Shown: piece by piece, positions 4,411-32,998 of the stretch
Numbering within the stretch: position 1 is the first letter of the stretch
How the letters are laid out: each line of letters opens with the position of its first letter
From: Deltaproteobacteria bacterium
GTDB lineage: Bacteria > Desulfobacterota > Binatia > Binatales > Binataceae
Length of the DNA stretch: 33,782 nucleotides
Direction of reading: 5' to 3'
Assembly: GCA_021801125.1 (NCBI GenBank)
Contig: JAJYYI010000066.1
Location: forward strand, 1 to 33,782
Position numbers and translations under genes: made by a program
The notes under the pieces: generated by a model
Databases searched by the model: none
What the model was told of the DNA's origin: nothing
Seen by the model: the letters and a program-made list of their open reading frames with translations, nothing else

Positions 4411-5793
4411 TCAGGCCTTTATCCACGGCGGCAGTTTAAAGCTGGCGGTCTGGTATGGCGGCGGAGCTATCAGCTCGGGTTCCTTCTTGTAGTCCTGGAT
4501 CTGCAGATACTGATGCGGCATGCCGAGAGAAGGATCGTTGGTCGCGTCCGGGTACGGAATCGCGGCTTGTTCCGGCACGAAGAAGTGCGTGGTACCCATT
4601 ACGCCGCGATATATCATGGCGCGCAGCCGATCCGCGACCTTGCGATTCTGATCGAACTCGCCCGGTCCACCGGTGCCGCCGGCGATCGCCGCCGCAAGGG
4701 CGTAATAATGCGCGCTATCGTAAACCTGCGCCGCCACCAGCGGACTAGCCGAAGGTCCGAATTTTTTCTTGTAGCGCTGATTGAAGTCCTCGCCAATCTT
4801 GTCGCGCAGCGACGCGATTACGGTCGAGTAGAGCACGCCATTGGTGGCCTTGCCGCCGATTTCACGAAACGCCGCGAGCGACGGTCCGTACTGCATGTAC
4901 ACCAGGCTATTCGTCGGATTGGGCGTGAACTGAAGCATGAACTGCGCCAAATCCTGGGGCACCCAGTGAGTGACCGCGATAACCGCGGGCGGCGCTTGGC
5001 GAATCTTCGCAAGCGTCGGACCCCACTCCGAAATCGGAACCACCACTGTCTCGAACAGGCTGAGATCCCATTCGTAACTCTTGGCCTTCGCTTTGATGGC
5101 GTTGGCGATCACCACGCTGTAGTTCTGGGAGCCTGTCACCACGGCGATTTTGTTGTTCGGCCGCTTCCATTGTCCCGACTTAACCAGCCCGTTGAGGAAG
5201 GCGAGTAGCCCTTCCCCATACCAGTACTCGGCCGGATCGCCCATGAAGATGCCGAAGTACTTTTTCGGATTCTTGCCGACCGTGCTGTGATGAACGATGT
5301 CGGTGTTGTGGTGGATATAGATGATTCCGGCGTCCGCGATCGTGTCGTATTCCGCGGTAACGGCGCCGGTGTTGTAACCGTTTACGATAGCGTGCACACC
5401 GTAACGGTCTATCAGGCGCTGCATCGCGGGGATAATGTTGTCCGCTCCTTGCTCTTTGGTGTCCTCGAAGTGCGGCTCGAGCGGTCGGCCGAGGATGCCG
5501 CCAAGGGCATTTATCTCGCCGCAGGACATCTCGAGCGCGCGCTTGAACTCGATACCATCGGCCGCGGCCCATCCGGTGAGCGGCACGCCGGCGCCTATCG
5601 GGATCGGCTTAGTGTTGGTCGCTTTGCCAGCTTCTTTGGCCTGGCTGTTGAGAGCGGCGAGCATCCCGCTGCCTAGAACGGCACCCGCTCCCGCGGTCGC
5701 GCCTATCGCGCGTTTGAGGAAGCCGCGCCGGCTTGAGTCGGCGACCCCCGTGCTCCGGCCGTCAGTGGTCGGCATTCTTGTACGCATCATCAT
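4411..5793 (-). CDS. Tat-exported ABC transporter substrate-binding protein (HAAT family)
   Basis: Periplasmic binding protein of the branched-chain/amide/urea type, 460 residues. A twin-arginine signal SRRGFLKRA is at about residues 22-30, followed by a hydrophobic stretch AGAGAVLGSGMLAAL, so export is by the Tat route. The mature part starts near PIPIGAGVPLTGWAAADG, the usual first strand of Peripla_BP_6 domains. Three ATG codons in a row (5793, 5790, 5787) follow GGGAGAT; the third has the best spacing to the ribosome site, so the protein may be two residues shorter. It lies 66 bp after the DMFase-like large-subunit gene and just before livG. Its likely ligand is an amide or a product of amide hydrolysis; this is inference from context. 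Confidence 0.9.
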   Translation of the reverse strand: MMMRTRMPTTDGRSTGVADSSRRGFLKRAIGATAGAGAVLGSGMLAALNSQAKEAGKATNTKPIPIGAGVPLTGWAAADGIEFKRALEMSCGEINALGGILGRPLEPHFEDTKEQGADNIIPAMQRLIDRYGVHAIVNGYNTGAVTAEYDTIADAGIIYIHHNTDIVHHSTVGKNPKKYFGIFMGDPAEYWYGEGLLAFLNGLVKSGQWKRPNNKIAVVTGSQNYSVVIANAIKAKAKSYEWDLSLFETVVVPISEWGPTLAKIRQAPPAVIAVTHWVPQDLAQFMLQFTPNPTNSLVYMQYGPSLAAFREIGGKATNGVLYSTVIASLRDKIGEDFNQRYKKKFGPSASPLVAAQVYDSAHYYALAAAIAGGTGGPGEFDQNRKVADRLRAMIYRGVMGTTHFFVPEQAAIPYPDATNDPSLGMPHQYLQIQDYKKEPELIAPPPYQTASFKLPPWIKA

Positions 5794-5859
5794 ATCTCCC
5801 TGAACTTTTCGTTCGACGAAGCGCTCGCTCCGGCTATGCTTTCGGCGCGGACGTCACGG

Positions 5860-8109
5860 TCAAAACGGTCTTTCGTCGAGGAATCTTTTGACTACGTTGG
5901 CTGTGATCCTGGAGACGTTATTGTCGTAGTTGTTGTGGGAGAGACTGCCCGCCCATGCGATCGAGCTGGTCGCGAAAACCGCGCCTCCGCTGGGAGTCTC
6001 GTAAAATACGAGGTCGGCCCGAACGAGATCGCTCTCGCCTCCGCACAGACCAGGCGCGTTGATCAGGATCTCCTCCAGAACAACCATGTAGACGGGCGTA
6101 TGGTTTTCCGAGGAGGCAAGCACGAGCGCGTTTGGCGGCGTGCCCAACAAGCGGTCGGCTCGGTCCACTTCGAGACCCGCCGCGCCCCCGCCGATAAGAC
6201 CGAAATTGCCGATAAGCTCGTCCTTTCCGACGCCCTCGAAGATGAAGCTCGCGCGCGAGTCGAAGCTGTCCTTGGTTCGGCGGTAATACGAAGACAGGTC
6301 GAAGCCCTGAGCCGAGAAGCCGGTGCCCGCCATTTTTTGCGGAGCCAGTCCCTGGCGACGCCAGAGTCCGCCGTATTCACCAGTGAAGCTGTGATAGTAT
6401 TCGCCCGGCTCCGCCGCCCACGCCCGGATGCCGCCCTCGGCGCGCCGCACCTCGATTACGCCCGGTTTGGTCTGATGGTACGCGATGCGCCAGTACCAGG
6501 CGTTGGCACCTGCATAGATAAGGCGCCCACCTGCTTTCTTGAAAGCGTCGAGCGCGTCCCACATCTGCTTCGACCAGTACTCGTGATGGGTCGAGGTCAT
6601 AAAAACGCGATACGGCGCGATCGCTTCGTAGCCCTCGAAGTGCAGGTCTTCGTCGGTGATGCAGTCGTAGTCGAACTTCAACGCTTCGAGCCAGTCCGTG
6701 ATATGGGTATCCGCGTTCATCTGCCACAGCGAAGAGCCCTTGCCGCCCAGCCATGACTGGTACTTCGGGCGCATCGTCAGAATCGGCCGCAGCCGCGATG
6801 AGTAACACACCCCGCTGCCGTCGGCGTGGGTGTCGTAGCACGAGTAGCCGTATTCGCGGTGCTCGTGAAGAAATACGTCGGTCGCCTGAAGCGTCGCGAG
6901 CCGCCCGGTCAGAAGCTCGGCGAGCGTAGCGTCGGTTGCCATATGCTCGTTCGCGTAAGCCATGTAGCTAGCCGTGGGAACCACAAACACGAGCTTAGAG
7001 GTGGCCTTGCCACGTTCGGGCTTGACGACGAAGGGTATGAAGTCCTCATCATCTTCGGTCGCCACATGCGCGGCGTAAAGACCGCTTCGCAGCCCAGCCG
7101 GAACGGTGAATGTAAAATCGGTATCCCATCCGGCGTCGTAGAGGTCGTCGTCGTGAAAATGGATGGCGCCGTACTGTTCGGGCTTGTGCTTCCAGCACAT
7201 CTCCTCGCCGGTCCAATTCCAGCCGGTCATCGCGCGCGCGGGCAGATTCAACGTCTCGCCATGGTGGCGATTTGGCGACACATCGATGATCCGCTCCGTC
7301 GTAATCTCCTTAGAGAAGTCCCAGAGCCCGACCAACGCGGCGTGCAGAGAAGCAGGCGGCCCCCCACTGCGCAGCTGTTCCATTTCGAGCCGCGATAACA
7401 CGCGGCTAGCCAAGATCGGCCTGTCGATTTTGCCGTTATAGTGAGCGCTTGTGCGCTCTCGGCCGTCAGACATCCGGACAGGGTGAGCAGCGATGACGAC
7501 AGGCGCGCCGTTTTCATTTCGCGGTTTAATCGTCACAGTGCCCTCGACCCGAGCCGACGTGTCTACCTTCGCATAGGGCACCATCGGCTTCTGATAGAGA
7601 CAGACCTCGCCGCTTACGGCGTTGTAACTTGCCGCAACGAAATACCACTCTCTGCTGAGCATCGGCTTGCCCGCCCGGACCTCTTCGGTCTTTCCGGTGC
7701 CATCGCTCAGCGCAAGCGCCAATCCGCCACTTTCATCAAGTCCGAAGATGAAGCCCGCGCCCGACTTGGCGTCGCAATGACTCAGTATCGTCTGGCGCCC
7801 TTTCTCGGGAGTGGTTGGCCATACCATCGCTTGCACGGAAAAGCTGCTTAGCTTGTCGAAGGCAGGATGGCTGGGAATGACGGCACACGAGCCGGCGAAG
7901 ATCGCTTGCTTGCGTCCCTTGTAAGTGCCGTCGAATTCGCTTTTGACAGCCTGCTCTTTGTATCCAGGTCCTTCTGGATTGGTATCGCCGTGAATGATAC
8001 GCACGAGGCGCGCCTTGTAGCTCGAAGCCTTTTCGCAAGACACCATAAACCGGATGGCTTCGCCGGGGCGCACACTGATCTTGTCGCTATAACCCATGAT
8101 CTGCTTCAT
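5860..8109 (-). CDS. dmfA2: N,N-dimethylformamidase-like large (beta) subunit
   Basis: About 749 residues, close to the length of the known DMFase large subunit. DMFase hydrolyses N,N-dimethylformamide to dimethylamine and formate. The N-terminus MGYSDKISVRPGEAIRFMVS is family-typical; a LamG-like jelly-roll region lies at about 67-247 and the catalytic half follows at about 370-700. The Paracoccus enzyme holds a mononuclear iron on two tyrosines and a glutamate. Here candidates are Tyr382 in ASYMAYANE, Tyr422 or Tyr425 in EYGYSCYD, and Glu510 in THHEYWS. I chose ATG at 8109 because GGAGG lies 8 nt upstream. A TTG at 8163, overlapping the small-subunit stop by 4 nt, would add 18 residues. Family is confident; the preferred amide is not known. 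Confidence 0.87.
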   Translation of the reverse strand: MKQIMGYSDKISVRPGEAIRFMVSCEKASSYKARLVRIIHGDTNPEGPGYKEQAVKSEFDGTYKGRKQAIFAGSCAVIPSHPAFDKLSSFSVQAMVWPTTPEKGRQTILSHCDAKSGAGFIFGLDESGGLALALSDGTGKTEEVRAGKPMLSREWYFVAASYNAVSGEVCLYQKPMVPYAKVDTSARVEGTVTIKPRNENGAPVVIAAHPVRMSDGRERTSAHYNGKIDRPILASRVLSRLEMEQLRSGGPPASLHAALVGLWDFSKEITTERIIDVSPNRHHGETLNLPARAMTGWNWTGEEMCWKHKPEQYGAIHFHDDDLYDAGWDTDFTFTVPAGLRSGLYAAHVATEDDEDFIPFVVKPERGKATSKLVFVVPTASYMAYANEHMATDATLAELLTGRLATLQATDVFLHEHREYGYSCYDTHADGSGVCYSSRLRPILTMRPKYQSWLGGKGSSLWQMNADTHITDWLEALKFDYDCITDEDLHFEGYEAIAPYRVFMTSTHHEYWSKQMWDALDAFKKAGGRLIYAGANAWYWRIAYHQTKPGVIEVRRAEGGIRAWAAEPGEYYHSFTGEYGGLWRRQGLAPQKMAGTGFSAQGFDLSSYYRRTKDSFDSRASFIFEGVGKDELIGNFGLIGGGAAGLEVDRADRLLGTPPNALVLASSENHTPVYMVVLEEILINAPGLCGGESDLVRADLVFYETPSGGAVFATSSIAWAGSLSHNNYDNNVSRITANVVKRFLDERPF

Positions 8110-8117
8110 TGCTTGTG

Positions 8118-8122
8118 CCTCC
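8118..8122 (-). promoter_or_regulatory. Ribosome binding site deciding the dmfA2 start
   Basis: GGAGG lies 8 nt before ATG 8109 on the minus strand. The alternative TTG start at 8163 has no comparable site, so 8109 is preferred. Confidence 0.6.
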
Positions 8123-8159
8123 GCGTCGCGGCTCGTGCTAGTCGTGCTGAAGTTGCGGC

Positions 8160-8459
8160 TCAATCACTGAGATGCTCGCCCGTGTATTTTGCCCAGCGCT
8201 GCTTGAAGACGTACCATTCGGCTTCTTCGAGCGAATGAAAGACCTCTTCCGTCATACGGATGCGCTCGCCGCGCGTACCGGATAGCACGGCCAGAGTCCA
8301 TTCTCGATGCGGGCGAGTGCAGATCAGCGCGAATTTGCCCGCCATCGGCTCGCCGCGAAATAGATTGAGTATCCGCTGCAAATTGGGAGAATGGTGTCCA
8401 ATAGGCGTTTTCCTGAACTCTTCGATACACGCTTTGTCTTCAGGCCTTATTTGGTACAT
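8160..8459 (-). CDS. dmfA1: N,N-dimethylformamidase-like small (alpha) subunit
   Basis: Small protein of 99 residues directly before the large subunit, the same arrangement as dmfA1-dmfA2 of Paracoccus and Alcaligenes DMFase, though shorter than the roughly 130-residue known alpha subunits. It is rich in charged and aromatic residues, with no signal peptide or membrane segment: HREWTLAVLSGTRGERI and FHSLEEAEWYVFKQRW suggest a compact alpha/beta fold covering the large subunit. GGAGG lies 5 nt before its ATG. It is the first gene of the operon. Assignment rests on position and general resemblance. Confidence 0.72.
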   Translation of the reverse strand: MYQIRPEDKACIEEFRKTPIGHHSPNLQRILNLFRGEPMAGKFALICTRPHREWTLAVLSGTRGERIRMTEEVFHSLEEAEWYVFKQRWAKYTGEHLSD

Positions 8460-10827: not shown

Positions 10828-13404
10828 CTACGCAGTTAGCCGTCGAGCAAAGGCCTCCGCAACCAAAAGCACCATCGCCGCGACCAGCAAGACAAGCCTC
10901 CCGGACACGCGCCGTTCCAGCGTCGGCCGTGACAGCGACACTTCCCCCACTGAAGGGTTGAGACGTCCGCCGGTGACCGAAGCCAGACGCTCGAGCAAAG
11001 CATAGTTGGGATACGGGCGGGGCAATTCGGCCAGGACGACGGGGCTTACAGAGTATGCCATGGGAGGAAAGGTAACCTTCTTATCGCCGGCCCCCGACCG
11101 CAGCGCGATTCCGTAAACCCCCGGGCGCGCAGCATCGATACTCCCGCTGACCTCCCCCGGCGCATCCTGCGACAACGTCATTTGCGCAGTGCTGCCGTCG
11201 GGCCGCTGCACAATTGCGCCGAGCGCGGAGACCAAGCGCTCCGTTTCCTCGCTGTAGGCAATCAGCTTGAATTTAAGCCTGCCGTTCTCGTAGCCGAGTT
11301 CGGCCGCGTAGTTCGATGCCGTCACTTCCGTATTCCCGGTCATCCAGTCGAGGATCTGATCCCAGAGCCGGGAAAAGACGTTGGCGCGCAGCCAGTCGGC
11401 CGCCCAACGCTCGCCGGCATCGGTGGTGACGGCTAACGTTTTGCCGGAGCCGAAATGCCAGCTCGCCACTACAGGTTCGCGCCGACCGTCGCGCTCCACG
11501 TAGGCGTCGAGCTGGGCGCCGGCCTTGAGTTCGGTGCTCACGTAGCCCTTAATCGGCGGCAACGTTTCTCCGCCGGCGCTTTTGAACACCGGATCTCCCG
11601 GCGTAACGCGCGGTCGAAACTGCCTTTCCACCATCGTGACATCCGCGCTGCGCTGGTCAACGTCGCGAAGCGTTATCTCCGGCAGCGTGCTGGGATTGTC
11701 GGTTTGGTAAAACGCGCCACCGCCGTAGCGGCTGATCGCACTCAGCAAATCCACGTTGGCTTCGCGACCAATCGCGATCGTCGAGATCGTCACGCCTCCG
11801 TTCAGGTGCATCTTGGAGACCAAATTGTAGTACATGTCCGCGGTGCCGCCGGTCTTACCGTCGGTGAGGATCACTATATGCTTGATTGCGGTAGGACTCG
11901 AAGTAAGGTTGCGGTACGCTTCCTGGAGCGCGGGCAAAAGGTAAGTCGTGCCTTGCGCGAGCAAGCGATTGACCATTTCCGCGAGGTACGGTCGGCTGGT
12001 CCTGAGCGACTGAAGCGGGACCACGACGAAGGGCTGCGAGTCAAACCCGATCACGCTAAGGAAATCGTCGTCGTTAAGCGAGCGCGCGGCGGCGAGCGCC
12101 GCCGCCTTGGCGTATTCGAGCTTGTTGTCGCGCGCCATCGATCCCGACTTGTCGATCACGATAATCAGCGCGCGCCGCGGCTTACGATGCTGGGGTGGTT
12201 TCATCTCGACGGGCAACGCCCGCGCAGGCTCACTCTGCATCCAGCCGCCCAGGCCGAAGCTGTGATCGCCGCCGACCATCGCCAGGGCCCCTCCACGCTC
12301 GGCGTAGTCGGTTAAGTCGCGGCGCGTGGCGGGAGCGAGCTGAGCAAATGAAACGTTGTTGAGCACGATCGCCGCGTATCGCCCGAGGTCGCCGAGCGCC
12401 AGGCCGGGCTTGGGCTCGACAGTGTCAGTCTCAAGTCCGCGCTGGCGCGCCACGCTTTGCAGGTATCGCGCCTCGCGCGGGCTTCCCGTCAGAATCAGCG
12501 CCTTGCGCTGCGCGCCGATCCCAACCCACCCGACGAGCGAGTTGTCCTCAGTGTAAGCGTCTTGCGCCGGATTGTCGGCGGTGAAGGAGGCGCGGTATGA
12601 ACGCAGCCCGGCGCTCTGCGGGCGAACGGAAAAGTCGATGCGCGTGAATCCGGGCGGCAAGATCACCTGGCGCGTCTCAAGGCGCTTTTCTTTTTCGAGC
12701 AACTCGACGCGTCCCGCCGCCGGCTCGGCGTTCGAGTTAAGCATCGTGACGCTCACCGTGAAGGGACCGCTAGCCGGGAGCGCTCGCGGCAAGCTCATCG
12801 CGGTCATCGCCACGTCGGGCAACGCCGTCGGTGGAGGCGAGAAAATAAACAATCTGCTTTGTGCCGCGGCGAGCGCGTCGAGCGCAAGGCGCGCTTGTCC
12901 GCGGTTTTCCCATCCGTCGGTAACAAGAACGACCGGTCCAACGGCGCGCTGGCTTTGGCTTGCCAGCACACGCAAAGCAGTCTCCAGGTTGGTTTGCTCC
13001 GGCGCGCATCGCGCACACCCGGGGCCCGCGAGCGCCTTTACCGCGTCGCCGAGCACGGTTTGCTCCGCCTGGCCGCCGAAAAGTATCGCCGGGTCGTCGT
13101 CGCGAAACTTAAGCTCATTCCTCAGCAGCTCAGAAACCCACCGGCGCATCGGCGCCGCGATGCTGTGCGATAGGTCGAGCAGCACCGGCCGCGCGTTGCC
13201 TTCGAAGCGGCTGACGCGCTGCGGATCGGCGAGCGCAAGCACCATCAGCGCAACCACGGCGGCCCGCATCAGCGCCGCGACCATGCGCCGCGGCTCGCGC
13301 ACCTGCCACAGCGACCATGCGAGCAAAAGGACGACTGCGAGCAAAAGGTAGAGCACCGACGGATGGCCCCAGCTGACCCCGGGCATTAGGTTGTCCCATC
13401 TCAC
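10828..13404 (-). CDS. Membrane vWA and glutamine-amidotransferase-like protein
   Basis: Large protein of 858 residues. Two N-terminal membrane segments lie at about 17-34 and 45-60 and a C-terminal one at about 835-852. A first, poorly conserved vWA-like segment (VLLDLSHSIAAPM, near 75-87) follows. A class-I-glutamine-amidotransferase-like domain at about 300-400 contains AMVGGDHSFGLGGW; it lacks an obvious catalytic Cys and is probably structural. A true vWA domain has a full metal site DKSGSM at 418-423 and LTDGKTGG near 530. Such proteins occur next to MoxR/DUF58/BatA genes and probably assemble at the membrane facing the periplasm. Its start overlaps the stop of the BatA-like gene by 4 nt. 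The process served is unknown. Confidence 0.85.
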   Translation of the reverse strand: MRWDNLMPGVSWGHPSVLYLLLAVVLLLAWSLWQVREPRRMVAALMRAAVVALMVLALADPQRVSRFEGNARPVLLDLSHSIAAPMRRWVSELLRNELKFRDDDPAILFGGQAEQTVLGDAVKALAGPGCARCAPEQTNLETALRVLASQSQRAVGPVVLVTDGWENRGQARLALDALAAAQSRLFIFSPPPTALPDVAMTAMSLPRALPASGPFTVSVTMLNSNAEPAAGRVELLEKEKRLETRQVILPPGFTRIDFSVRPQSAGLRSYRASFTADNPAQDAYTEDNSLVGWVGIGAQRKALILTGSPREARYLQSVARQRGLETDTVEPKPGLALGDLGRYAAIVLNNVSFAQLAPATRRDLTDYAERGGALAMVGGDHSFGLGGWMQSEPARALPVEMKPPQHRKPRRALIIVIDKSGSMARDNKLEYAKAAALAAARSLNDDDFLSVIGFDSQPFVVVPLQSLRTSRPYLAEMVNRLLAQGTTYLLPALQEAYRNLTSSPTAIKHIVILTDGKTGGTADMYYNLVSKMHLNGGVTISTIAIGREANVDLLSAISRYGGGAFYQTDNPSTLPEITLRDVDQRSADVTMVERQFRPRVTPGDPVFKSAGGETLPPIKGYVSTELKAGAQLDAYVERDGRREPVVASWHFGSGKTLAVTTDAGERWAADWLRANVFSRLWDQILDWMTGNTEVTASNYAAELGYENGRLKFKLIAYSEETERLVSALGAIVQRPDGSTAQMTLSQDAPGEVSGSIDAARPGVYGIALRSGAGDKKVTFPPMAYSVSPVVLAELPRPYPNYALLERLASVTGGRLNPSVGEVSLSRPTLERRVSGRLVLLVAAMVLLVAEAFARRLTA

Positions 13405-15200
13405 GAGAGAATTCTCCCCATCGGGCGCCGGCGCCGATATGCCAGCGTCGCCTCCAATGCGGCAAGCGCCAGCGCAGCGGCAATTAGGATCGGGGCCAGC
13501 TTAAGCTTGGCTTCGGTCGCGGCAGGCTCGGCGGCCGGCGGCGCTTGCGCCACCGCGAACACCGCCGGGTCGAGAAGATTCGATTCGCTCAACGAGTCGA
13601 AATTCACCGCCCGCAAGATTCGATCCTTGCCGTTGAGCAGCTGATAGACCCCCTGCTCAACGGCGCCGTCAAAGAGCCGCGACGGCGTCACGGCGAACGT
13701 GGCGCCGGAAGGCGCGACGATCCGCTCGACGCCCGGGGGAACGCGCCACGGCTGCCCCACGCGATAAGACTCTATCGGGGACATCAGACGACCGAGATAG
13801 CTCAAGACGTTGAGCGTAAACACCGACATCGGCAAATTGCGCTTGCCGAGGTATGGAAACGGCACGAAGCCCAGCGCGATATAGCGTCGGCCGTCACGCT
13901 CCCCGCTTAAAACCAGTCCGCCGTCCGTACCGTCGGCGATCGTTTCCATCCACGGATGGGGAGCGAAGAACTCGCCGCGGCGCGCTTCGAACAAGCGAAA
14001 ATTCACTCCGTCAGTGAGCGGATTCGGCCGCCGCCAGCTCATGATCTCGACGGTGGCGGAACGCGTTGCGAAATCGAAAGGCGGCGTCGCACCGGGCGGC
14101 ATCACCAAGAGCGTGTTCGCCCCGGGCAGCTCCTTGGGCGCCGCGTATTCGAAGATAACGATGTCGGCGGAAAGCGATTGCTCGGGTCTGTATTTGTCCG
14201 GCGCTTCAACGACGAGACGCACGCCCGGCAGGGCGTCGAGCCCGGACGCGTCGTTCGGCTCCGGCGAGACGAACAAAATCCTTATCTCGCCGCCCGCGCC
14301 GGGCACGGCGTAGGCCACGTTGTCAAGCGCGAAGGCGTCGGTAGGCTCAAGCTGCAGGCGGAAGTACGGAGCGGACGGCAAATCGGGAAAATCGACCGCC
14401 CCGACGGTGCCTGCCGCGAGGTTAAGCTCCTTCACGGCGAGCCGCTTTGCCCCGTCGCTCACGGTCAGGCGCACCGGCGCGGCCTGCGAGCTGAAGTTCG
14501 CCGCCACGGCTCGGGCACGCACCGTTTGGCTGCCGAGGCTCCCTCGTTCCACCACGAAAGAGCCAAGCGCGAAATTAGCCACTGAGTCGCCGATTGTAAG
14601 TCCCATCAGCCGCCCGGGTATCACGGGTCTAAGCGGATGGCTGCTGGCGACTACGACCTGCGCGTACCTCGTGTCATCCACAAGCCGCTCAACCAGGTCG
14701 GCGACCGCGCGCGGATCCTCGGCGGCGTCCAGCGGCTTAAGCTTGTCGATCTCAGCCCTGGCGGCATCCTCGCCCGCCAGCGGCGGGCCGAGCGGATGAG
14801 GAAGCGGCGCCGTCAGATATACGGTGATTTCGTCCTGCCCGCCGCGCAGAAAAGCGAATAGTCGACCGCGCGCCGCATCGAATCGAGACTGCCCAGAGGG
14901 CATCTTGGCCCGCATCACCCCCGAGTTATCGAGCACCACGGCGATCGGCTTTTGTCGACGAATGAAATAGGGTTCGGCGGCCGCCAACGCGACCAACAAG
15001 AGAATCAGCAGCTCGGCAAAGAACATCCAGTCGAAGCGCGGACGGCCCCATTTCGCGCGGCCCTGGCTTGCGCCCAGCGCCCTGAAGGCGAGCAGGCTCG
15101 AAACCACGACGCGGTTGGGCCGTTCACGCACGAGGTATGCGAGCGCGAGCACCGGAATCAACGCGGCGAGGGATAAGCCTATGGGGTACAGCAGTCCCAT
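13401..15200 (-). CDS. BatA-like membrane protein with vWA-like domain
   Basis: About 599 residues. The N-terminus has the BatA (aerotolerance regulator) layout: a membrane segment at about 4-24, a linker with a conserved-looking RVVVSSLLAFRAL, then a second hydrophobic segment ELLILLLVALAAAEP. A vWA-like domain starts at VVLDNSGVM. Its metal site is degenerate: DxSxV instead of DxSxS, so metal binding may be lost. A C-terminal membrane segment LILIAAALALAALEATLAY ends the protein. The start is ATG 15200; a TTG at 15224 would add 8 residues, and neither has a clear ribosome site. The next gene overlaps by 4 nt. It likely forms a membrane complex with the other vWA protein. Confidence 0.83.
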   Translation of the reverse strand: MGLLYPIGLSLAALIPVLALAYLVRERPNRVVVSSLLAFRALGASQGRAKWGRPRFDWMFFAELLILLLVALAAAEPYFIRRQKPIAVVLDNSGVMRAKMPSGQSRFDAARGRLFAFLRGGQDEITVYLTAPLPHPLGPPLAGEDAARAEIDKLKPLDAAEDPRAVADLVERLVDDTRYAQVVVASSHPLRPVIPGRLMGLTIGDSVANFALGSFVVERGSLGSQTVRARAVAANFSSQAAPVRLTVSDGAKRLAVKELNLAAGTVGAVDFPDLPSAPYFRLQLEPTDAFALDNVAYAVPGAGGEIRILFVSPEPNDASGLDALPGVRLVVEAPDKYRPEQSLSADIVIFEYAAPKELPGANTLLVMPPGATPPFDFATRSATVEIMSWRRPNPLTDGVNFRLFEARRGEFFAPHPWMETIADGTDGGLVLSGERDGRRYIALGFVPFPYLGKRNLPMSVFTLNVLSYLGRLMSPIESYRVGQPWRVPPGVERIVAPSGATFAVTPSRLFDGAVEQGVYQLLNGKDRILRAVNFDSLSESNLLDPAVFAVAQAPPAAEPAATEAKLKLAPILIAAALALAALEATLAYRRRRPMGRILS

Positions 15201-15320
15201 ACGGGAGCCAGCATCGAACGGCAATAGGGTCTAACGTCATCGGCCGCGCTAAGCCGTCTTGTCACGGCGACCTGGGGCGAACCGAACCTGCGGTGCGTAA
15301 TTAACCGGATGAGCGAAGCG

Positions 15321-16220
15321 CTAATGCACCAGGTCAAGGTGAACAGCCGCCTTGAGAAAGAAATCTTCAAACGAATCGCCGGTGTTGTAGAGGGCATAGC
15401 GCATGCCTTGTTTGAGGCAAACTGCGCGGATCTCGCGCGCCAATCTCAAAAGCGTCTCGCGGTATCGCGCGCGCTCGTTCTCGCCCACCGAAAGACGCAG
15501 CCGCTCGCCCGTTTCGGCGTCAACCAGCTCTGCCTGACCGATTATCCCCTGCGCCTTAAGCTCGCTCGCGCCGAGAACCTGAATGGCGCTGACGTCCATG
15601 TTGGCGGCAGCGAACAGACCAAGTCCGCGCCGGATCGAATTAAACAGCATGAGAAAGTCAGAAATTACAAAGACCTTGCCGGCGCGTTTAATCGAGATCA
15701 ACTCCCGCGCCAGCGCCGCGGCGAGGTCGAGCGCTCCTGCAGGCTTGACTCCAACCAACGCCCGCGCCAAGTCCGCCACGCGGCTTCGGCCCTGGACGAA
15801 GCCGGCGGCGGCTGGAACCACACGCCCGCTCAACATTCGCAGCATCACTCGGTCGCCTTCCGACAAGACCACGTAGGCCAGCGCCAAAGCGATCGCGAGC
15901 GCCGCGCGGAACTTGTTGTCGGCGGCGGGATGCGCCATCGACGCGCTGTCATCGATGAAGATATAGGTGAGCAGGCTTTCCTCTTCTTTGAACAGCTTGA
16001 CATAGAACTTGTCGGTGCGAGCGTACAAGCCCCAATCGATGTAGCGGAAGTCGTCGCCCAGCGCGTAGGGACGAAAGTCGCTGAATTCCAGCGACGAACC
16101 GCGGCGCGGCGACAGATGGGAACCGCGGCCCATGCCAGCGTACTCGCGCTTGGTGCGCAGCCGCAGATGGTCCAGGCGCGAGATCAGTTTGGGCGTAAGT
16201 TCGGGGACCAGATCGAACAT
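15321..16220 (-). CDS. DUF58 domain protein (MoxR-associated)
   Basis: About 299 residues. It shows the DUF58 signature SDFRPYALGDDFRYIDW then YARTDKFYVKLFKEEE, followed by a vWA-like segment with IFIDDSASM as metal site. These proteins are found next to MoxR ATPases almost everywhere and are thought to be their partners or clients. The frame stays open upstream to 16496, but that part overlaps the moxR frame and is Gly/Arg-rich noise. ATG 16220 starts MFDLVPELTPKLISRLDHL, the family-typical beginning, just 2 nt after the moxR stop, so coupling is likely. Confidence 0.9.
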   Translation of the reverse strand: MFDLVPELTPKLISRLDHLRLRTKREYAGMGRGSHLSPRRGSSLEFSDFRPYALGDDFRYIDWGLYARTDKFYVKLFKEEESLLTYIFIDDSASMAHPAADNKFRAALAIALALAYVVLSEGDRVMLRMLSGRVVPAAAGFVQGRSRVADLARALVGVKPAGALDLAAALARELISIKRAGKVFVISDFLMLFNSIRRGLGLFAAANMDVSAIQVLGASELKAQGIIGQAELVDAETGERLRLSVGENERARYRETLLRLAREIRAVCLKQGMRYALYNTGDSFEDFFLKAAVHLDLVH

Positions 16221-16222
16221 CG

Positions 16223-17239
16223 CTATGCGCGGGGCCGCTTGAGCCGCTTGACCACCTGGTCGAGGATCGCTTCCGCGGTCACGTTTTCCGCCTCCGCCTG
16301 AAAGTTGCGCAGCAACCGGTGGCGCAGGGCGGGGACGATGACGTCCTCGATATCCTCGTAGCTCACGCTGACGCGCCCGGCCAGGAGAGCATTCACCTTC
16401 GCCCCCATGATCAATGCCTGGGCGCCGCGCGGGCTGGGACCGAAACGCAGATACTGCGTCGCCTCGGGGATCACCGCCGCGCTGCCCGGCGTGCAAGAAG
16501 TGATTACGGCGATCACGTAGCGCTCCAGCGGCTCGGCGATCATCACCTCGCGCACCAGCGCCTTAAGCCGCTCCACTTGAGCCGGAGCCTGAGACGGCTC
16601 GAAGATGGGCTTGACCTGGGATGCCGCAACGCCCGTGGTCCGGCTGAGAATCTCGCGAAGTTCCTCAGGCCTGGGCGGCGTGATCACCACCTTAAACAAG
16701 AAGCGGTCCATCTGAGCCTCCGGCAGCGGGTAGGTGCCTTCGAGCTCGATCGGATTTTGCGTGGCGAGGACCAAAAAAGGCGGCGCCAGAAGATAGGTGT
16801 TGCCGAACACCGTCACCTGATGCTCTTCCATCGCCTCAAGCACCGCCGATTGGGTTTTGGGCGTTGCGCGATTGATCTCGTCACCGAGCACGATATGCGC
16901 AAAGATTGGCCCGGGCTTGAACTGAAATTCGCGCCGCCCGTCCTCCTCGACCAAGATCTGGGTGCCTACAATATCGGAGGGCATCAGGTCCGGCGTGAAC
17001 TGAATTCGCTTGAAGGTGAGCGCGAGCGTCTCACTCACGGTCTTCACCATCAGGGTCTTGCCCAAACCGGGGACGCCTTCGATGAGCACATGGCCGCCGC
17101 AGAACAGGGCGGCCAATACTCGGCGAACCGTTGCCTGGTTGCCAACGATGACCTTACTGACCTCGGCTTCGGCTCGCTTGAAGATTTCTCTGAACTCGGC
17201 CGCTCGTTCGGCCGGTGTCATTCTTGGCGCAACTCCCAT
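16223..17239 (-). CDS. MoxR family AAA+ ATPase
   Basis: AAA+ ATPase of 338 residues. Walker A is GVPGLGKT at 55-62, Walker B is LGDEINRA at about 118-125, and the MoxR-specific segment KTQSAVLEAMEEHQVT follows, then LATQNPIELEGTYPLPEAQ and RFLFKV. It probably acts as a chaperone that remodels or loads metal-dependent vWA proteins, here encoded by the next three genes. AAGGA lies 7 nt before the ATG. It heads the conserved moxR-DUF58-batA-vWA series and follows the stop-interrupted membrane gene by 28 nt. Confidence 0.94.
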   Translation of the reverse strand: MGVAPRMTPAERAAEFREIFKRAEAEVSKVIVGNQATVRRVLAALFCGGHVLIEGVPGLGKTLMVKTVSETLALTFKRIQFTPDLMPSDIVGTQILVEEDGRREFQFKPGPIFAHIVLGDEINRATPKTQSAVLEAMEEHQVTVFGNTYLLAPPFLVLATQNPIELEGTYPLPEAQMDRFLFKVVITPPRPEELREILSRTTGVAASQVKPIFEPSQAPAQVERLKALVREVMIAEPLERYVIAVITSCTPGSAAVIPEATQYLRFGPSPRGAQALIMGAKVNALLAGRVSVSYEDIEDVIVPALRHRLLRNFQAEAENVTAEAILDQVVKRLKRPRA

Positions 17240-17267
17240 TCTTTAGTCCTTACAATTTTGGGTGCCG

Positions 17268-17960
17268 CTAGCGCAGCACGTCGCGATAGCGCGGCGGAAC
17301 CAATTGCCGCTCCTCAAGCTTCGCCGGGCCGGGCCCTACGGGCAAGGGCAAGTTGGCGTACGGTGTCGTCGCCTTGGACGGCGGCGCGCCGGTGACCAAC
17401 CTGCCGCCTTCGCCGGCACGCGCCGCTTCGGGGATGTGCACCATTACATAGCGCGCGTCCTTGATTCCCAGTGGCGGTCCGTTTTCGCCGGGCTTATAGA
17501 ACCGCGCATAAGCCTTCTGCGCGGGAGTTTCACCAAGGCGGGTGTCGCCGGAGCCCGTTTTGGTGTTCTGCGGTGCTTGGCCGGGTTTGGGCTTTCCCTC
17601 ATTGCCGGCGATATCGGGAGCATGCGGACCGGGTTGATCCCCCTTTGCCACACGGTTTTTGGGCGACTCGCCAGACTTTTCTCCGGCGAGCGACTGGTTC
17701 TCTCTTCCACCACCACCCGTCTGATTCCCTTCACCTTGGGGACGATTTTCGCTCATTTCTTTAGAAGGCTTTCGACCTTCGGTACTTTCGGTTTCTAGCT
17801 GCTTTTCACTTTTGGCAAGCTCGTTTCGCGCCTGTGCGACGAGCTCCTTGCCCTTGGCTTCGCCCTCTTCCGGTCCTTTTCCGCGACCGCGCCCCTGGCC
17901 TCCGGACCCGCCTTCACCACGGCCGGGGCGCTCCTTTCCCGCACCTTCACCGCTCCCGCC
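17268..17960 (-). pseudogene. C-terminal part of the interrupted membrane-protein gene
   Basis: The reading frame of the upstream ORF continues after its TAA (17963-17961) for 230 more codons without another stop. The first 68 codons are low complexity (Gly, Glu, Lys, Arg) and join the Gly/Ser-rich end of the upstream part smoothly. They contain no NTG start codon, so the first possible restart is ATG 17756, with no clear ribosome site. From there 162 residues follow, ending with a more conserved-looking part: ETPAQKAYARFYKPGE, RYVMVHIPEAA and EERQLVPPRYRDVL. The last block resembles the C-terminus of proteins in MoxR operons, but I do not recognise a named family. It may still be made as a separate 162-residue protein. 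Confidence 0.6.
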
Positions 17961-18785
17961 TTAGGAACCCGCTCCCGAGCCGCGCGCAGCCACAGCCATG
18001 TTCCGCGCCTGCGCCGCGCTCTTCTCCGCCGACCCCCTTTGCTCCAACGCATGCTTTATGGCAACGATCCGCACAAGCTTTTCCTTCAGGCTTATATCGG
18101 GATCAGTCAGCACGCTTGCGGCAGCACGCAGATGGCGCGCAAGTTCCTGTGCGCTTGGGTCGGTCTTCGCGATCTCATCAGCCAACCGCACCAGCCGGCG
18201 CGCCTCGCCCTGGTACGGCGACCGCTCAAGGCGCGACACTAAAACCAACGTTCCAAAAAGCAGGCCCGCCGAGGCAAGGCCAAGCAGAGCCGCGCGCGCC
18301 AGCACCCGCAGCTTATTCAGCTGAAACCGCCGCACGGGATCAAAAGAAGCGAGATACTCCGCCACGCGCCGCCAGAGGATCGGAAACAAAGGACTACGCG
18401 CCGCGCCGGCAGAAGCGACCAAACCGGCGAAGGTCAAAATCTCTTGTTGAGCGTTCAGCTCTGCGTCAATTCGCGCGGCCAAATGCTCTAGGTTGTCGGC
18501 CTCATGATAGGCGCACCACGAACGCCAAGCGGCGAAGCCCAGGGCTAGCCCCGCCAGCATCAGAAAGGCGACATGAATGCGGGAAAGCGCGGCTGAACCC
18601 ATCGCGATACCAATTCGCTCTCCTAGGGCCCGGGCTGCGCTCCATTTAAGGGTCAGCGCTAAAAGTGCGGTCAACAGGGACGCGGGCAACCAGGTGAGTA
18701 TCGGCTCAAGTGCGGCAGCCTTGCTCGCGCGCCGGCGCGCCAGGTTGATGATTTCAACTGGATTAGTCACGGGTCGTCGTAACAA
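17961..18785 (-). CDS. Membrane protein of the MoxR operon, ended early by TAA
   Basis: 274 residues from TTG 18785; GTG 18770 is an alternative. There are three hydrophobic segments, at about 29-47, 68-85 and 163-187, with a helical region between (AYHEADNLEHLAARIDAEL, a coiled-coil-like stretch). A charged region then ends in GSGAGS just before TAA. It starts 5 nt after the mltG stop, in the operon order mltG, this gene, moxR. The same frame stays open downstream for 230 codons, so the intact gene probably covered 17268-18785 and about 505 residues. No named domain is recognised; the layout (membrane helices, helical part, low-complexity tail) suggests a scaffold for the MoxR/vWA complex. 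Confidence 0.65.
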   Translation of the reverse strand: MLRRPVTNPVEIINLARRRASKAAALEPILTWLPASLLTALLALTLKWSAARALGERIGIAMGSAALSRIHVAFLMLAGLALGFAAWRSWCAYHEADNLEHLAARIDAELNAQQEILTFAGLVASAGAARSPLFPILWRRVAEYLASFDPVRRFQLNKLRVLARAALLGLASAGLLFGTLVLVSRLERSPYQGEARRLVRLADEIAKTDPSAQELARHLRAAASVLTDPDISLKEKLVRIVAIKHALEQRGSAEKSAAQARNMAVAARGSGAGS

Positions 18786-18790
18786 CGCGC

Positions 18791-19861
18791 CTAACGCGTC
18801 GCCGTGACTGGCACTCGCCGGACGGGTGCGGCATGTTTCGACCCCGCCTGGGCGCGGTTATGCGTGGCCGCCGCCTTGCGCAGCGCGGCAATTGCACGTT
18901 GATGCTCGGCGAGCGATCGCGAGAAAACGTGCGTGCCATCATTACGCGCCACAAAGTAAAGATACTCGGTATGCGCAGGATACAGCGCCGCCATGATCGC
19001 CGCCAACCCGGGGTTGGCTATCGGCCCCGGCGGCAGGCCGGCGAAATCATAGGTATTAAAGGCCGACGGCGTATGTACCGCCTCGTAGGGCGACCGAACC
19101 ACGCCGTCGCGGTCATATTCAGCCGTCGGATCCGACTGGAGCGGCATGCCCAGACGTAGGCGATTATAAAACACGCCTGCTATCAGCGGCCGTTCCGGGG
19201 CGAGCGCCGCTTCCTTCTCGACCATCGAGGCCAGGGTGACCATCTGATGGGTCGTGATTCCGAGCGCGAACTCGCGCTCCTCCACCGCAGGCGTCAGGAT
19301 CGAATAGAAGCGCTCCAGCATCGCGGCGACGATCTGGTCAGGCTTGACGGTAGGGGAAAAACGATACGTCGCCGGGAAAAGATACCCCTCGGCGCCCGTC
19401 GGTTTTAACTGCAGCGACTCGACGATCTCACCGGCGGTGGCGGCCTTGACGAAATCGTCGGCGCAAACCAGATGCGCTCGTTCAAGCCGCTCGGCTATCT
19501 GCCGCACCGTGAACCCCTCGGGAATCGCGATTACTAACTCTATCGACTGCCCCTTGGCGATATGGGTTAGCACTTCATCGATTCGCTCGCCGCCGGAGAA
19601 CGCATATTCACCGGGTTTGAGCAGCCGATCCAGGCCGCTAAGCGTGGCGTAAGCCATGGTCAGCCAACTGCTGCGAACCACGTGCGCCCGCTTAAGTTTC
19701 AGCGCGATCGACCTAAGCGAGTCGCCCGGTTTAATCGAGACGGTTCGCGGGTGCTCGAGCGGCGCGGGCGGCACAAACCATAGAAAGACGACAGAGGCGA
19801 CGCACAGTGAAACCCCAACCAGGCATAGCGCGATCGTCAGGCGTAGCGAGAAACGGCGCAT
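18791..19861 (-). CDS. mltG: Endolytic murein transglycosylase MltG
   Basis: 356 residues, the normal MltG length. There is an N-terminal membrane anchor at about 8-30. A LysM-like part follows (VSIKPGDSLRSIALKLKRA at 41-59), then the YceG catalytic domain. The catalytic glutamate is Glu215 in ASMVEKEAAL, matching Glu218 of E. coli MltG. Also typical are GVFYNRLRLGMPLQSDPT, NTYDFAGLPPGPIANPG and YLYFVARNDGTHVFSRSL. MltG cuts nascent glycan strands in the periplasm to end their elongation. It lies downstream of ruvX on the same strand, about 220 bp away. Confidence 0.95.
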   Translation of the reverse strand: MRRFSLRLTIALCLVGVSLCVASVVFLWFVPPAPLEHPRTVSIKPGDSLRSIALKLKRAHVVRSSWLTMAYATLSGLDRLLKPGEYAFSGGERIDEVLTHIAKGQSIELVIAIPEGFTVRQIAERLERAHLVCADDFVKAATAGEIVESLQLKPTGAEGYLFPATYRFSPTVKPDQIVAAMLERFYSILTPAVEEREFALGITTHQMVTLASMVEKEAALAPERPLIAGVFYNRLRLGMPLQSDPTAEYDRDGVVRSPYEAVHTPSAFNTYDFAGLPPGPIANPGLAAIMAALYPAHTEYLYFVARNDGTHVFSRSLAEHQRAIAALRKAAATHNRAQAGSKHAAPVRRVPVTATR

Positions 19862-29109: not shown

Positions 29110-30111
29110 TTACAGGACCTCTGCGCGAGCCGTAAAAAGCGCCGGCGCGCCTCCCGTATGCACGAAAATTACCGTGTCCTCACTGGCTACGCGACCTCGG
29201 GATATAAGCGCCGCCAGACCCGCAAACGCTTTGCCCGTGTAAGTCGGGTCGAGAAAAATTCCCTCCGTTCGCGCCGTAAGGCGAATCGCTTCCATTCCTT
29301 CGGCACTAGCAATCCCATACCCCTCGCCGATAAATCCGTCGTGCACCACCACGTCGCCATCCGACAGCGCGACAGGTAGATCGAGCGTCTCAGCGGCCGC
29401 GTCGCCAAGCGCCAGCACGCGCCGCCTGACTTCAACGGCCGGGCGACTCACCGTAACGCTCTCCACGCGCCAGGGTAGGTGAAGACTTTTCACTCCCAGA
29501 AGCCATCCCGCGTAGGTTGCCCCGGAACCGGCCGCCAGAAGCACCAGGTCGGGCCGGATGCCGCTTTCCGCGCAATGCGCGGCCGTTTCGTAGACAGCTA
29601 GAATGTGCGCGGCCACGCCAAGAGCGCACGCTCCACCGCGCGGAATTCCGTACGGCCGCCGGCCGGCGCGGGCCATGTCCGCGACGACCGATTCTATCTC
29701 AGCGTCGACCGACGCGCGGTCCGGATTTCCGGTGAAACGGACTTTGCCGCCGAGCATCCGAGTCAACAGATAATTGCCTTCCGTGCGCGGCGGCGGCGAG
29801 CCCCACAAAATCGCGAGGCTTTCGATTCCCGCGAAAGCCGCGGCAGCCGCCGTAGCCCTCACGTGATTCGACTGCGGGCCAGCCCCGGTAACCACGATAT
29901 CAGCCTGCCGAGCTATAGCGTCGGCCAGCAGAAACTCAAGGCCGCGAACCTTATTGCCCCCGAAACCGAAGCCGATGAGGTCGTCACGCTTAAACCAGAG
30001 ATGCGCTATACCGAGACTGCGAGCAAGCCTTTGGGCCGGGCTCATCGCAGTCGGCAGGCTTGCCAGTCTCACTCTGGCGAGCGCACCAAGCTTGGCTTCC
30101 AGAGGATACAA
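29110..30111 (-). CDS. PLP-dependent D-cysteine desulfhydrase/ACC deaminase-like enzyme (XcbE1 candidate)
   Basis: 333 residues, fold type II PLP enzyme. The PLP lysine is Lys54 in GGNKVR, and QSNH at 80-83 is the usual substrate-contact motif; LLAAGSGATYAG binds the phosphate and FVHTGGAPALF ends the domain. On its own it would be called D-cysteine desulfhydrase. In the Xanthobacter coenzyme M cluster the gene xcbE1 encodes a member of this family, and the published pathway uses a PLP enzyme in its thiolation chemistry. Here it is the last of four tightly packed genes starting with a ComA homologue, so that role is more likely. The start is TTG, 3 nt after the preceding stop, with AGG 7 nt upstream. 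Confidence 0.85.
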   Translation of the reverse strand: MYPLEAKLGALARVRLASLPTAMSPAQRLARSLGIAHLWFKRDDLIGFGFGGNKVRGLEFLLADAIARQADIVVTGAGPQSNHVRATAAAAAFAGIESLAILWGSPPPRTEGNYLLTRMLGGKVRFTGNPDRASVDAEIESVVADMARAGRRPYGIPRGGACALGVAAHILAVYETAAHCAESGIRPDLVLLAAGSGATYAGWLLGVKSLHLPWRVESVTVSRPAVEVRRRVLALGDAAAETLDLPVALSDGDVVVHDGFIGEGYGIASAEGMEAIRLTARTEGIFLDPTYTGKAFAGLAALISRGRVASEDTVIFVHTGGAPALFTARAEVL

Positions 30112-30114
30112 AGC

Positions 30115-31476
30115 TTACCTGCGTCTTAATTCTTCGACGACGCGGCCAGCCAGCGCGGAGCATTGGCCGGCGTTTCGCCGATAGTCAAACAAATCCGAAA
30201 TCTCCTGCGCCGAGAGATGCTCGCGGACCGTCTGAGAGTTACACACAATCTCCTTGAAGGGCCGTGCGTCGCGCTGAGCCGCAAGCCCGAGTTCGTACAC
30301 CAGTTCGTGCGCGCTCTGCTTCCCCATCTTGGGTGCTAGCGCAAGCATAAGAGCCTCCGAAGACACCAGACCCGCGGTCGCGTCCAAATTGCGCCGCATC
30401 CGCTCTGCGTCAACTTCAAGATTCGCCGTGACCGAGACCAGCAGAGACAACAACCTGCACGCCGCTGCGGAAATTTCCGGGACGGCTTCCCATTCGACCT
30501 TCCACGAGCGTCCGTCCCGCTCATGATCATGAACCATGCTTTCGCCTAATAGCGCCGCGTTGTGTCTAATGACACGCGCCAGAGTCCCTAGATGCTCGGA
30601 AATCTCCGGGTTCCGCTTGTGAGGCATCGTGATGCTCCCCACGGCGCCTGACGAGGAGCCTTCCCGCACCTCTGCGATTTCGAAGCGCTGCAGGTTGTAG
30701 ATCTCGTGTCCAATCCTGTCGGCGGTGGCACCGATGAGAGCCAGCAGGTTGGCGTAATCAACCACGCTGTCGCGCGAGTTCGTCCAAGAAATCAACGGAG
30801 GCTTAAGCCCCAGCCGCACACAGAATTTTTCCTGCACTTCAAGCGCGCGAGGGCCAAGGGCAGAGAGGCTGCCAACTCCTCCGCATAGCTGGCCCACGCC
30901 AAGTTGCTGCGCTGCTCTGTTCAGGCGGTCGCGATGGCGCCTGACCTCGGCGGCCCATCCGGCCACTTTGAAGCCAAACGTGATTGGCAGTCCGCATTGC
31001 CCGTGGGTGCGTCCGACCATAACGGTGTCGCGATGCTCGCTGGCGAGCTTCAGGAGATTTGACTCAATTTGCTCCAAATCTCTTGCGATCAGCGCCTGCA
31101 CCCTCATCAGCGCTCTGCCCATCCAGGTGTCCGTCACGTCCTGCACCGCGGCTCCGTAGCATACCCACTCGCCGAAGCCGCTGGGACAGCGTTGCGCAAC
31201 AGCGTTAATTATGCCCACTAAGGAATGATTCGAGGCCTCGAAACCGCCGCGCACCTCCGCCAAGAACCGCTGGTCGACAGCTATGGCGCGGCAGACATCG
31301 GCTACCCCTTTTCCTGCCTCGGCGGGAATCAACGCAAAGTCAGCCTCGACCTCGGCCAACACAGCGAGGATCTCTAGCCAATCCCTGGTACGGGGCACGT
31401 CGTCGAAGATCGCCCGCAGCTTCTCTGTGCTCCAGGCGCTGCCGAAAATGGCAGAGTCAATTATGTGGAGCGCCAT
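30115..31476 (-). CDS. Aspartase/fumarase-superfamily lyase, PurB/CMLE-like (XcbD1 candidate)
   Basis: 453 residues. The superfamily signature SITMPHKRNP is at 281-290, with the flexible catalytic Ser281, and the first conserved region GRTHGQCGLPITFG is at 155-168. It looks most like adenylosuccinate lyase or 3-carboxy-muconate cycloisomerase. It is not in a purine or aromatic cluster. Instead it overlaps the preceding lyase gene by 20 nt and follows a ComA homologue. The bacterial coenzyme M pathway uses aspartase/fumarase members after phosphosulfolactate synthase, and by position this is the second. Its reaction (decarboxylation step or another) cannot be fixed from sequence. Confidence 0.83.
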   Translation of the reverse strand: MALHIIDSAIFGSAWSTEKLRAIFDDVPRTRDWLEILAVLAEVEADFALIPAEAGKGVADVCRAIAVDQRFLAEVRGGFEASNHSLVGIINAVAQRCPSGFGEWVCYGAAVQDVTDTWMGRALMRVQALIARDLEQIESNLLKLASEHRDTVMVGRTHGQCGLPITFGFKVAGWAAEVRRHRDRLNRAAQQLGVGQLCGGVGSLSALGPRALEVQEKFCVRLGLKPPLISWTNSRDSVVDYANLLALIGATADRIGHEIYNLQRFEIAEVREGSSSGAVGSITMPHKRNPEISEHLGTLARVIRHNAALLGESMVHDHERDGRSWKVEWEAVPEISAAACRLLSLLVSVTANLEVDAERMRRNLDATAGLVSSEALMLALAPKMGKQSAHELVYELGLAAQRDARPFKEIVCNSQTVREHLSAQEISDLFDYRRNAGQCSALAGRVVEELRRR

Positions 31477-32998
31477 CTATCTCGATCCCGAGCTTAACTA
31501 CACGGCACATTAGCTCTTGATGGGCGGCCGCGATTCGCTCCTCGGCGCTTCGCCACCACTGCGCATACTCTGCCAGACTGCCGCGGCATTCGTCGCACAT
31601 CGCGGCTATCGCACCCGGCCCCGCACCTCCCAGGTTTTCGCGCGCCGCCACGGCTTTTGCGGGATTGAGCGCTTGCTCTAATACGTTCACCGGAATCTTG
31701 AGCGGTTGGCCGGTCATCTCCGCGGCAACCGCGTCGAGGTCGGGGCCGGTTAGCGTCGACAGGCTGCGCCCGCACGCCACGAACTGACGCACCAAACGAG
31801 CGACGATTTGATGGGCCGACCTGAAATCAACACCTGTATGTGTCGTGATCGTCTCAGCCAAGTCCGCCGCCATCACAAATCCGTCAGCGGTTGCAGCCTT
31901 ACCCCTGGCGCGATCAAAGCGCATTTCCCGCAATACTCCGGCGATCAGGCTCGCGACGTTAGCAACCTGCTTCAGCGCATGGGGGACCTTTCCATATACG
32001 AAGATCCGGTTGTCCATTTGGCCGGTGGCGGTGCGGTTCAACGCGACGACGGCGGCCTGGGTTCCGACCATCTCATTGGCGACGCCCCGAACGTAGGCTA
32101 GCGCGTACGGGTTTTTCTTTTGCGGCATCAGCACGCTCGCGCGCGCATACCGGTCCGGTATTTCGATCAGGCCGAACTCTGACGTAGCAAATATCTGGAG
32201 GTCTTCCGCAAAGCGCGCAAAATTGATCGTTGCGGCTGTCGCCACTGCCATGGTCTCGATCGGCACGTCCGCCTGCCACATCGCGTCGCGAGCATGAACC
32301 ACGCATCCGTCGAAGCCGAGAAGCGCGGCCAACCTTGCACGGTCTTGCGGCAACCGCGAGCCGTTAATCCCTCCGCATCCCGCGGGGCTGAGATTCACGC
32401 GGCGGAAAAGATTCTTGGCACGGTCGAGATCGCGAAGAATCGGATAAACGAAGGCGATTAGATAATGGCCGAACGTGGTGGGCTGCGCTGCCTGAAGGTA
32501 GGTGTAGTCCGCCATGATCGCTTCGGCGTGCTCCTGCGCGCGCTCGATCAGCGCCGTCGCTGCCTTTACCAGCTCTTTGCCAACGGCCAGGAGTTCCGAA
32601 CGCACGACAAGATGGTAGGCGACGGTAGCGGCTTCGCGCCTGGTTCGTCCGACGCCGAGCCACCGCGCGGCGTCGGTTCGGCGCGCCAGATACGCCTCGC
32701 GATTAGTATACAGATCGCCTCGTGCGGGGTCCGGAGCGAAGTCCGCGGGGCGTCGGCGCAGGTGTTCGAGCGCCGCAAGCAATTCGCGGCCCGGCTGCTC
32801 TGGAACAACGCCCGCCTCAATCATGACGACGGTATGAGCCAGGTCGGCATAACTCATCCCGTCGAAAAGAACGGCCTCTTCGGCAAGCTCATGCGCGAAG
32901 GCGCTGGTAATCAGTTCAGGCGCCGGCGCGGAAGAAAGACGGCCCCCTACGCTGAGAGAAACGTCCTCCGGCTCTGGCCGGGCGTCACGATTTCCCAC
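31457..32998 (-). CDS. Argininosuccinate lyase-like superfamily member with altered active site (XcbC1 candidate)
   Basis: About 513 residues from GTG 32998, overlapping the end of the ComA gene by 14 nt; the frame is open to 33118, but that part overlaps comA and is Arg-rich. It starts with [15 protein letters not shown], like the WGGRF region of argininosuccinate lyase. The signature [10 protein letters not shown] is at about 288-297. Two key sites differ from true argininosuccinate lyase: the SRNDQ substrate motif reads TRREA, and the catalytic His of YTHLQ is Tyr ([15 protein letters not shown]). It is therefore unlikely to make arginine. By position after comA it matches XcbC1, which removes phosphate from phosphosulfolactate to give sulfoacrylate. 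Confidence 0.82.

What the first reader, a model, noticed from the sequence alone, without database searches (positions are those of the whole stretch)
17268..18785. In-frame TAA splits a MoxR-operon membrane gene
The ORF ending at TAA 17961-17963 continues in the same frame for 230 codons, with Gly/Ser-rich sequence on both sides of the stop and no NTG start in the next 68 codons. A single base change would restore a 505-residue protein. It may be a recent nonsense mutation, a sequencing error or a read-through site that yields short and long forms.
Basis: seen in the sequence. Interest (0 to 1): 0.5.

Follow-up and report, generated by a model that had tools for sequence, protein, structure and literature searches.

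The report
Private stop codon in bacterial gene
In this one draft genome a stop codon interrupts a membrane-protein gene that is a single unbroken gene in all complete relatives compared, so it is most likely a recent mutation or a sequence error and not a special read-through signal.

Summary
On the minus strand an in-frame TAA (17963-17961) cuts a frame that stays open for 230 more codons, with no ATG/GTG/TTG in the first 68. The window lies in a 3.5 Mb, 150-contig draft related to Candidatus Binataceae. Both halves belong to one protein family without a Pfam or NCBIfam match, between mltG and moxR. In 32 of 32 other genomes holding both halves, one frame crosses this place without a stop (31 complete, 1 cut by a contig end). 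The stop falls in a Gly/Ser-rich linker predicted to be disordered; 22 of 30 invariant family columns lie beyond it. The second half shows no decay: its divergence from the sister species is like that of the first half. The stop is therefore very young or not real. Programmed read-through is unlikely: the relatives lack the stop, TAA ends other genes here, and no unusual RNA structure follows. Reads would be needed to tell a recent nonsense mutation from a consensus error. Ordinary, low interest. In passing: a second isolated in-frame stop in the same assembly, and a probable coenzyme M gene cluster.

The parts
17964..18770 (-). First part of the gene (269 codons from the likely GTG start): hydrophobic helices that look like three membrane spans (by eye, no predictor run) and a helical region
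   Evidence: start by alignment with the sister species; helices by the AlphaFold2 model of the sister protein
17961..17963 (-). In-frame TAA, found in this assembly only among those compared
17268..17960 (-). Second part of the same gene (230 codons and TAG): Gly-rich linker, one helix, conserved C-terminal tail (GDTRLGE, DARYV, PPRYRD)
18791..19861 (-). mltG (YceG-like) upstream neighbour
   Evidence: PF02618, 1.3e-82
16223..17239 (-). moxR (AAA_3) downstream neighbour
   Evidence: PF07726, 2.2e-62
15321..16496 (-). DUF58 protein (listed frame; the true start is probably further in)
   Evidence: PF01882, 6.4e-35
13401..15224 (-). BatA-N / VWA protein
   Evidence: PF07584, 4.4e-7
10828..13404 (-). 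VWA plus GATase1-like protein
   Evidence: PF00092, 3.7e-18; PF07090, 1.1e-13

Best explanation
This is one ancestral gene of the mltG - X - moxR - DUF58 - VWA - VWA cluster of this family of bacteria. A nonsense codon seen only in this assembly interrupts it in its linker. It is either a very recent nonsense mutation or strain variant, or a wrong consensus base in a draft metagenome assembly. If real, translation would give a 269-residue protein that keeps the hydrophobic helices and loses the conserved C-terminal tail, probably a loss of function (inferred). That one gene is interrupted privately is shown by comparison; the choice between mutation and error is not.
For: 32 of 32 other genomes with both halves have one frame without a stop between them, 31 complete and 1 cut by a contig end. 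Against the sister species, differences per codon position are 0.305/0.242/0.509 in the first half and 0.272/0.228/0.518 in the second. Synonymous-only versus amino-acid-changing codons are 75:115 and 62:96. Changes private to the window versus private to the sister, with one outgroup, are 23:22 and 22:17. The 230 codons have no further stop and align with the sister without a frameshift. In the same region, 24 of 25 matched frames have no stop after the window frame's own start.
Against: No reads, no second genome of this species and no expression data were available. The relative-rate counts are small (69 and 55 columns in which all three differ were left out) and cannot exclude decay over part of the branch.
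Confidence: 0.93

Rival explanations
1. Recent real nonsense mutation or strain variant in the sampled population (one arm of the best explanation).
For: The stop is private and isolated. Among 77 frame pairs compared with the sister species in six matching stretches, the target is the only stop in the window's genome with 100 or more aligned residues on both sides, so the stretches compared are not riddled with errors.
Against: The second half shows no decay, so a real lesion must be young. The six stretches are the window and 5 of the 15 sampled contigs; the contig with the second known stop (L077) was not among them.
Confidence: 0.52
2. Consensus or base-call error in a draft metagenome assembly (the other arm).
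For: Draft of 150 contigs, 96.01% complete, 4.21% contaminated. A second isolated in-frame stop exists in the same assembly in a DUF499 gene; six relatives have it in one frame of 1114-1169 codons. The second half is as constrained as the first.
Against: Only one such stop in 77 pairs. Depth at this position is unknown.
Confidence: 0.41
3. Programmed read-through of TAA giving short and long forms.
For: The frame beyond the stop is conserved, and the stop lies in a linker where a junction would be tolerated. The base after the TAA is G, not the U of the strongest bacterial signal (PMC5289835, passages).
Against: Absent from all complete relatives compared, sister species included. Downstream RNA folding is ordinary: z = -0.87 with the stop, -0.74 without. 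Read-through is reported least at UAA (PMC5289835, passages). TAA ends 23 of 126 long frames in the sampled DNA (the target's own frame may be one of them).
Confidence: 0.02
4. A recent split into two separately translated genes, the second starting at ATG 17756 or at a rare start.
For: A 162-codon frame starts at ATG 17756.
Against: That Met is not conserved in the sister. No good ribosome site was seen just ahead of it (read by eye). No relative among 32 has two genes.
Confidence: 0.04

Closest known systems
Isolated nonsense lesions (nascent pseudogenes) in bacterial genomes (recalled as a kind)
   Same: A single in-frame stop in an otherwise intact reading frame, private to one genome among those compared
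   Different: Not yet shown to be a real base; no further decay
Consensus errors in draft metagenome-assembled genomes (recalled as a kind)
   Same: One codon, draft assembly, no sign of lost constraint
   Different: Cannot be shown without reads
MoxR AAA+ / VWA gene clusters (NorQ/NorD, RavA/ViaA seen in a search listing only)
   Same: moxR followed by DUF58, BatA-like and VWA genes
   Different: Here a protein without a Pfam or NCBIfam match sits between mltG and moxR

Membership tests
Private nonsense lesion | Relatives have one uninterrupted gene | tested here: met
   32 of 32 other genomes with both halves, one of them cut by a contig end; 28 of 30 loci complete and unbroken, 2 cut by contig ends
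Private nonsense lesion | The base is real in the organism | not testable with these tools
   no reads
Pseudogene | Relaxed constraint or further lesions | tested here: not met
   codon-position pattern and relative rates are alike in both halves; no other stop or frameshift
Programmed stop-codon read-through | Stop conserved at the same place in relatives | tested here: not met
   no complete relative has it, sister species included
Programmed stop-codon read-through | Leaky stop context or stimulating RNA structure | tested here: inconclusive
   UAA is reported as the least read-through stop, but the next base is G, not the U of the strongest signal; folding is ordinary, z -0.87 and -0.74
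Programmed stop-codon read-through | Protein product across the stop | not testable with these tools
   no expression data
Stop codon reassigned genome-wide | TAA not used as a terminator | tested here: not met
   TAA ends 23 of 126 long non-overlapping frames picked by length, TAG 33, TGA 67, 3 run off an end; the target's own frame may be one of the 23
Two adjacent genes | Own start for the second part, in relatives too | tested here: not met
   no NTG for 68 codons; Met at 17756 not conserved in the sister; no relative has two genes
MoxR - DUF58 - VWA cluster | moxR, DUF58 and VWA genes in a row on one strand | tested here: met

The most novel reading that the evidence does not exclude
The TAA is real, fixed and partly read through, so that a short membrane form and a long form with the conserved tail are made in this one lineage.
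Probability: 0.02. Interest if true: 0.5.

Novelty: new member of a known kind. Interest (0 to 1): 0.08.

Why it matters
Little. It is an annotation caution: a gene caller would make two proteins, or one short one, from a single family member. If the stop is real, it is a natural truncation of an uncharacterised MoxR-cluster protein that removes its most conserved part.

Tried and rejected
Read-through, two genes and codon reassignment were considered and rejected as above.

A composition-based scan for split frames in 274,056 bases of this genome did not discriminate. It gave 4 rows without the target at the first setting, 20 rows with it and, with a filter on late starts, 13 rows here against 17 in 302,849 bases of the sister. 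The target scored low. I did not test the other rows by homology except one, the DUF499 stop.

The two-way homology scan compared six stretch pairs: the window and 5 of the 15 sampled contig stretches, picked because a long protein led to a matching place in the sister. The contig with the DUF499 stop was not among them. Looking for stops in the window's genome there were 77 pairs and 25,923 aligned residues. Six stops passed my rule of 40 residues and 40% identity on each side: the target, two overhangs of 43 and 51 residues ahead of window starts, one in a frame antisense to an ABC-transporter gene, and two in one frame of 46.5% identity. The target alone has 100 or more residues on each side. 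In the other direction (75 pairs, 25,780 residues) nine stops passed: five in one window frame antisense to transporter genes, these with more than 100 residues on each side, and four with 51-93 residues upstream.

Structure: the model is confident only in its helical parts (mean pLDDT 63.7). Foldseek against PDB gave no match at E <= 0.001. Pfam gave nothing for either half at E <= 0.001, NCBIfam nothing at E <= 1. No tRNA and no Rfam family at gathering score was found in the window. Papers: listings only; (four terms on premature stops in metagenome-assembled genomes) found none holding all four; of PMC5289835 I saw passages.

Full report
Observation. The finding lies on the minus strand. 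The frame from 18785 runs 274 codons to TAA at 17963-17961 and then 230 codons to TAG at 17270-17268. No ATG, GTG or TTG occurs in the first 68 codons after the TAA. By alignment with the sister species the start is probably GTG 18770-18768, which makes the first part 269 codons.

Setting. The window is contig 57 of a 3,497,987-base draft in 150 contigs, 96.01% complete and 4.21% contaminated. The gene sits between mltG (PF02618) and moxR (PF07726), followed by DUF58, BatA-like/VWA and VWA/GATase1-like genes. Neither half has a Pfam match at E <= 0.001 or an NCBIfam match at E <= 1. No promoter-like site was found in 17200-18900, and two terminator-like sites were found where shuffles give 2.5.

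Relatives. Of 57 genomes searched, the first half matches in 35 and the second in 33, the window's own genome included in both counts. The stop reported inside the match for G001 and G009 lies just ahead of their frames, which are unbroken over 505 and 491 codons. In all 32 other genomes that hold both halves a single frame crosses the place; G024 is cut at its 5' side by a contig end, the other 31 are bounded by stops on both sides. G011 and G013 could not be judged: G011 matched only with the first half, near a contig start, and G013 with neither. G038, outside the family, matched only with the first half, in an open frame of 495 codons. In a second collection, 28 of 30 loci are complete and unbroken and 2 are cut at contig ends. 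Among all these no relative has two genes here and none has a stop at this place.

Where the stop falls. In the family alignment the stop lies in a gap-rich Gly/Ser linker and its column is variable. In the AlphaFold2 model of the sister protein residues 1-250 are mostly helical and confident, 253-304 have pLDDT below 50, and a helix at 307-331 follows; the stop aligns at about residue 271 of that model (renumbered). The conserved tail itself is not modelled with confidence. Of the 30 invariant columns of the 25-sequence alignment, 22 lie after the stop. A truncated protein would therefore lose the most conserved part (inference: loss of function).

Age of the lesion. Codon by codon against the sister species, differences by codon position are 82, 65, 137 in 269 codons of the first half and 62, 52, 118 in 228 codons of the second. 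Synonymous-only to amino-acid-changing codons are 75:115 and 62:96. With G015 as outgroup, changes private to the window and to the sister are 23 and 22 in the first half, 22 and 17 in the second; 69 and 55 columns in which all three differ were left out. The second half shows no loss of constraint. The lesion is very young, or not in the organism, or without effect. The counts are small, so a period of decay on part of the branch is not excluded.

How prone is this assembly to such stops? In the window, 25 best non-overlapping matches to the sister species include one stop inside a gene, the target; the other stops lie in the first 53 residues of a stop-to-stop frame, ahead of the window's own starts. 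Over six matching stretches (77 pairs) the target is the only stop in this genome with 100 or more aligned residues on both sides. One further case came from the sampled contigs, outside those six stretches: a TAG at L077:7001-7003 splits a DUF499 gene. For its second part 9 of 9 other matching genomes show no stop inside the match; six lie in frames of 1114-1169 codons, three in shorter ones (846, 550 and 986), at least one of them beside a contig end. Other rows of the mechanical scan were not tested by homology. Isolated stops are thus uncommon but not unique in what I sampled of this draft, which fits young mutations and scattered consensus errors alike.

Read-through. TAA is used as a stop here: it ends 23 of 126 long frames in the sample, the target's own frame possibly among them. 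RNA folding after the stop is about that of shuffled sequence. No complete relative keeps the stop. In bacteria read-through is reported least at UAA, though the strongest signal is UAAU and here G follows (PMC5289835, passages seen). I put this at 0.02.

Verdict. The feature is ordinary.

Noticed in passing
L077 (G000:C100) 4904-8224, + strand, stop at 7001-7003: A second isolated in-frame stop (TAG) in the same genome, in a DUF499 gene; 9 of 9 other genomes matching the second part show no stop inside the match, six in frames of 1114-1169 codons.
   Followed up: partly
window 29110-33770, - strand: A PF02679 ComA (phosphosulfolactate synthase) gene, an argininosuccinate-lyase-like gene, an adenylosuccinate-lyase-like gene and a PALP-family gene in a row: it resembles the bacterial coenzyme M cluster xcbB1-C1-D1-E1 of Xanthobacter (name and order recalled). 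ComA matches 12 of 57 genomes including its own; the sister's match (60%) lies on another contig than its mltG-moxR region.
   Followed up: partly
G000:C59:108556-108627: A 24-residue match to the start of the window's ComA at 88% identity, in a 64-codon open frame; perhaps a strain-variant or contig-end fragment.
   Followed up: no
window 17268-18770 and relatives: The family itself (hydrophobic helices, Gly-rich linker, conserved tail with GDT, ARYV and PPRY motifs) has no Pfam match at E <= 0.001 and no NCBIfam match at E <= 1.
   Followed up: partly
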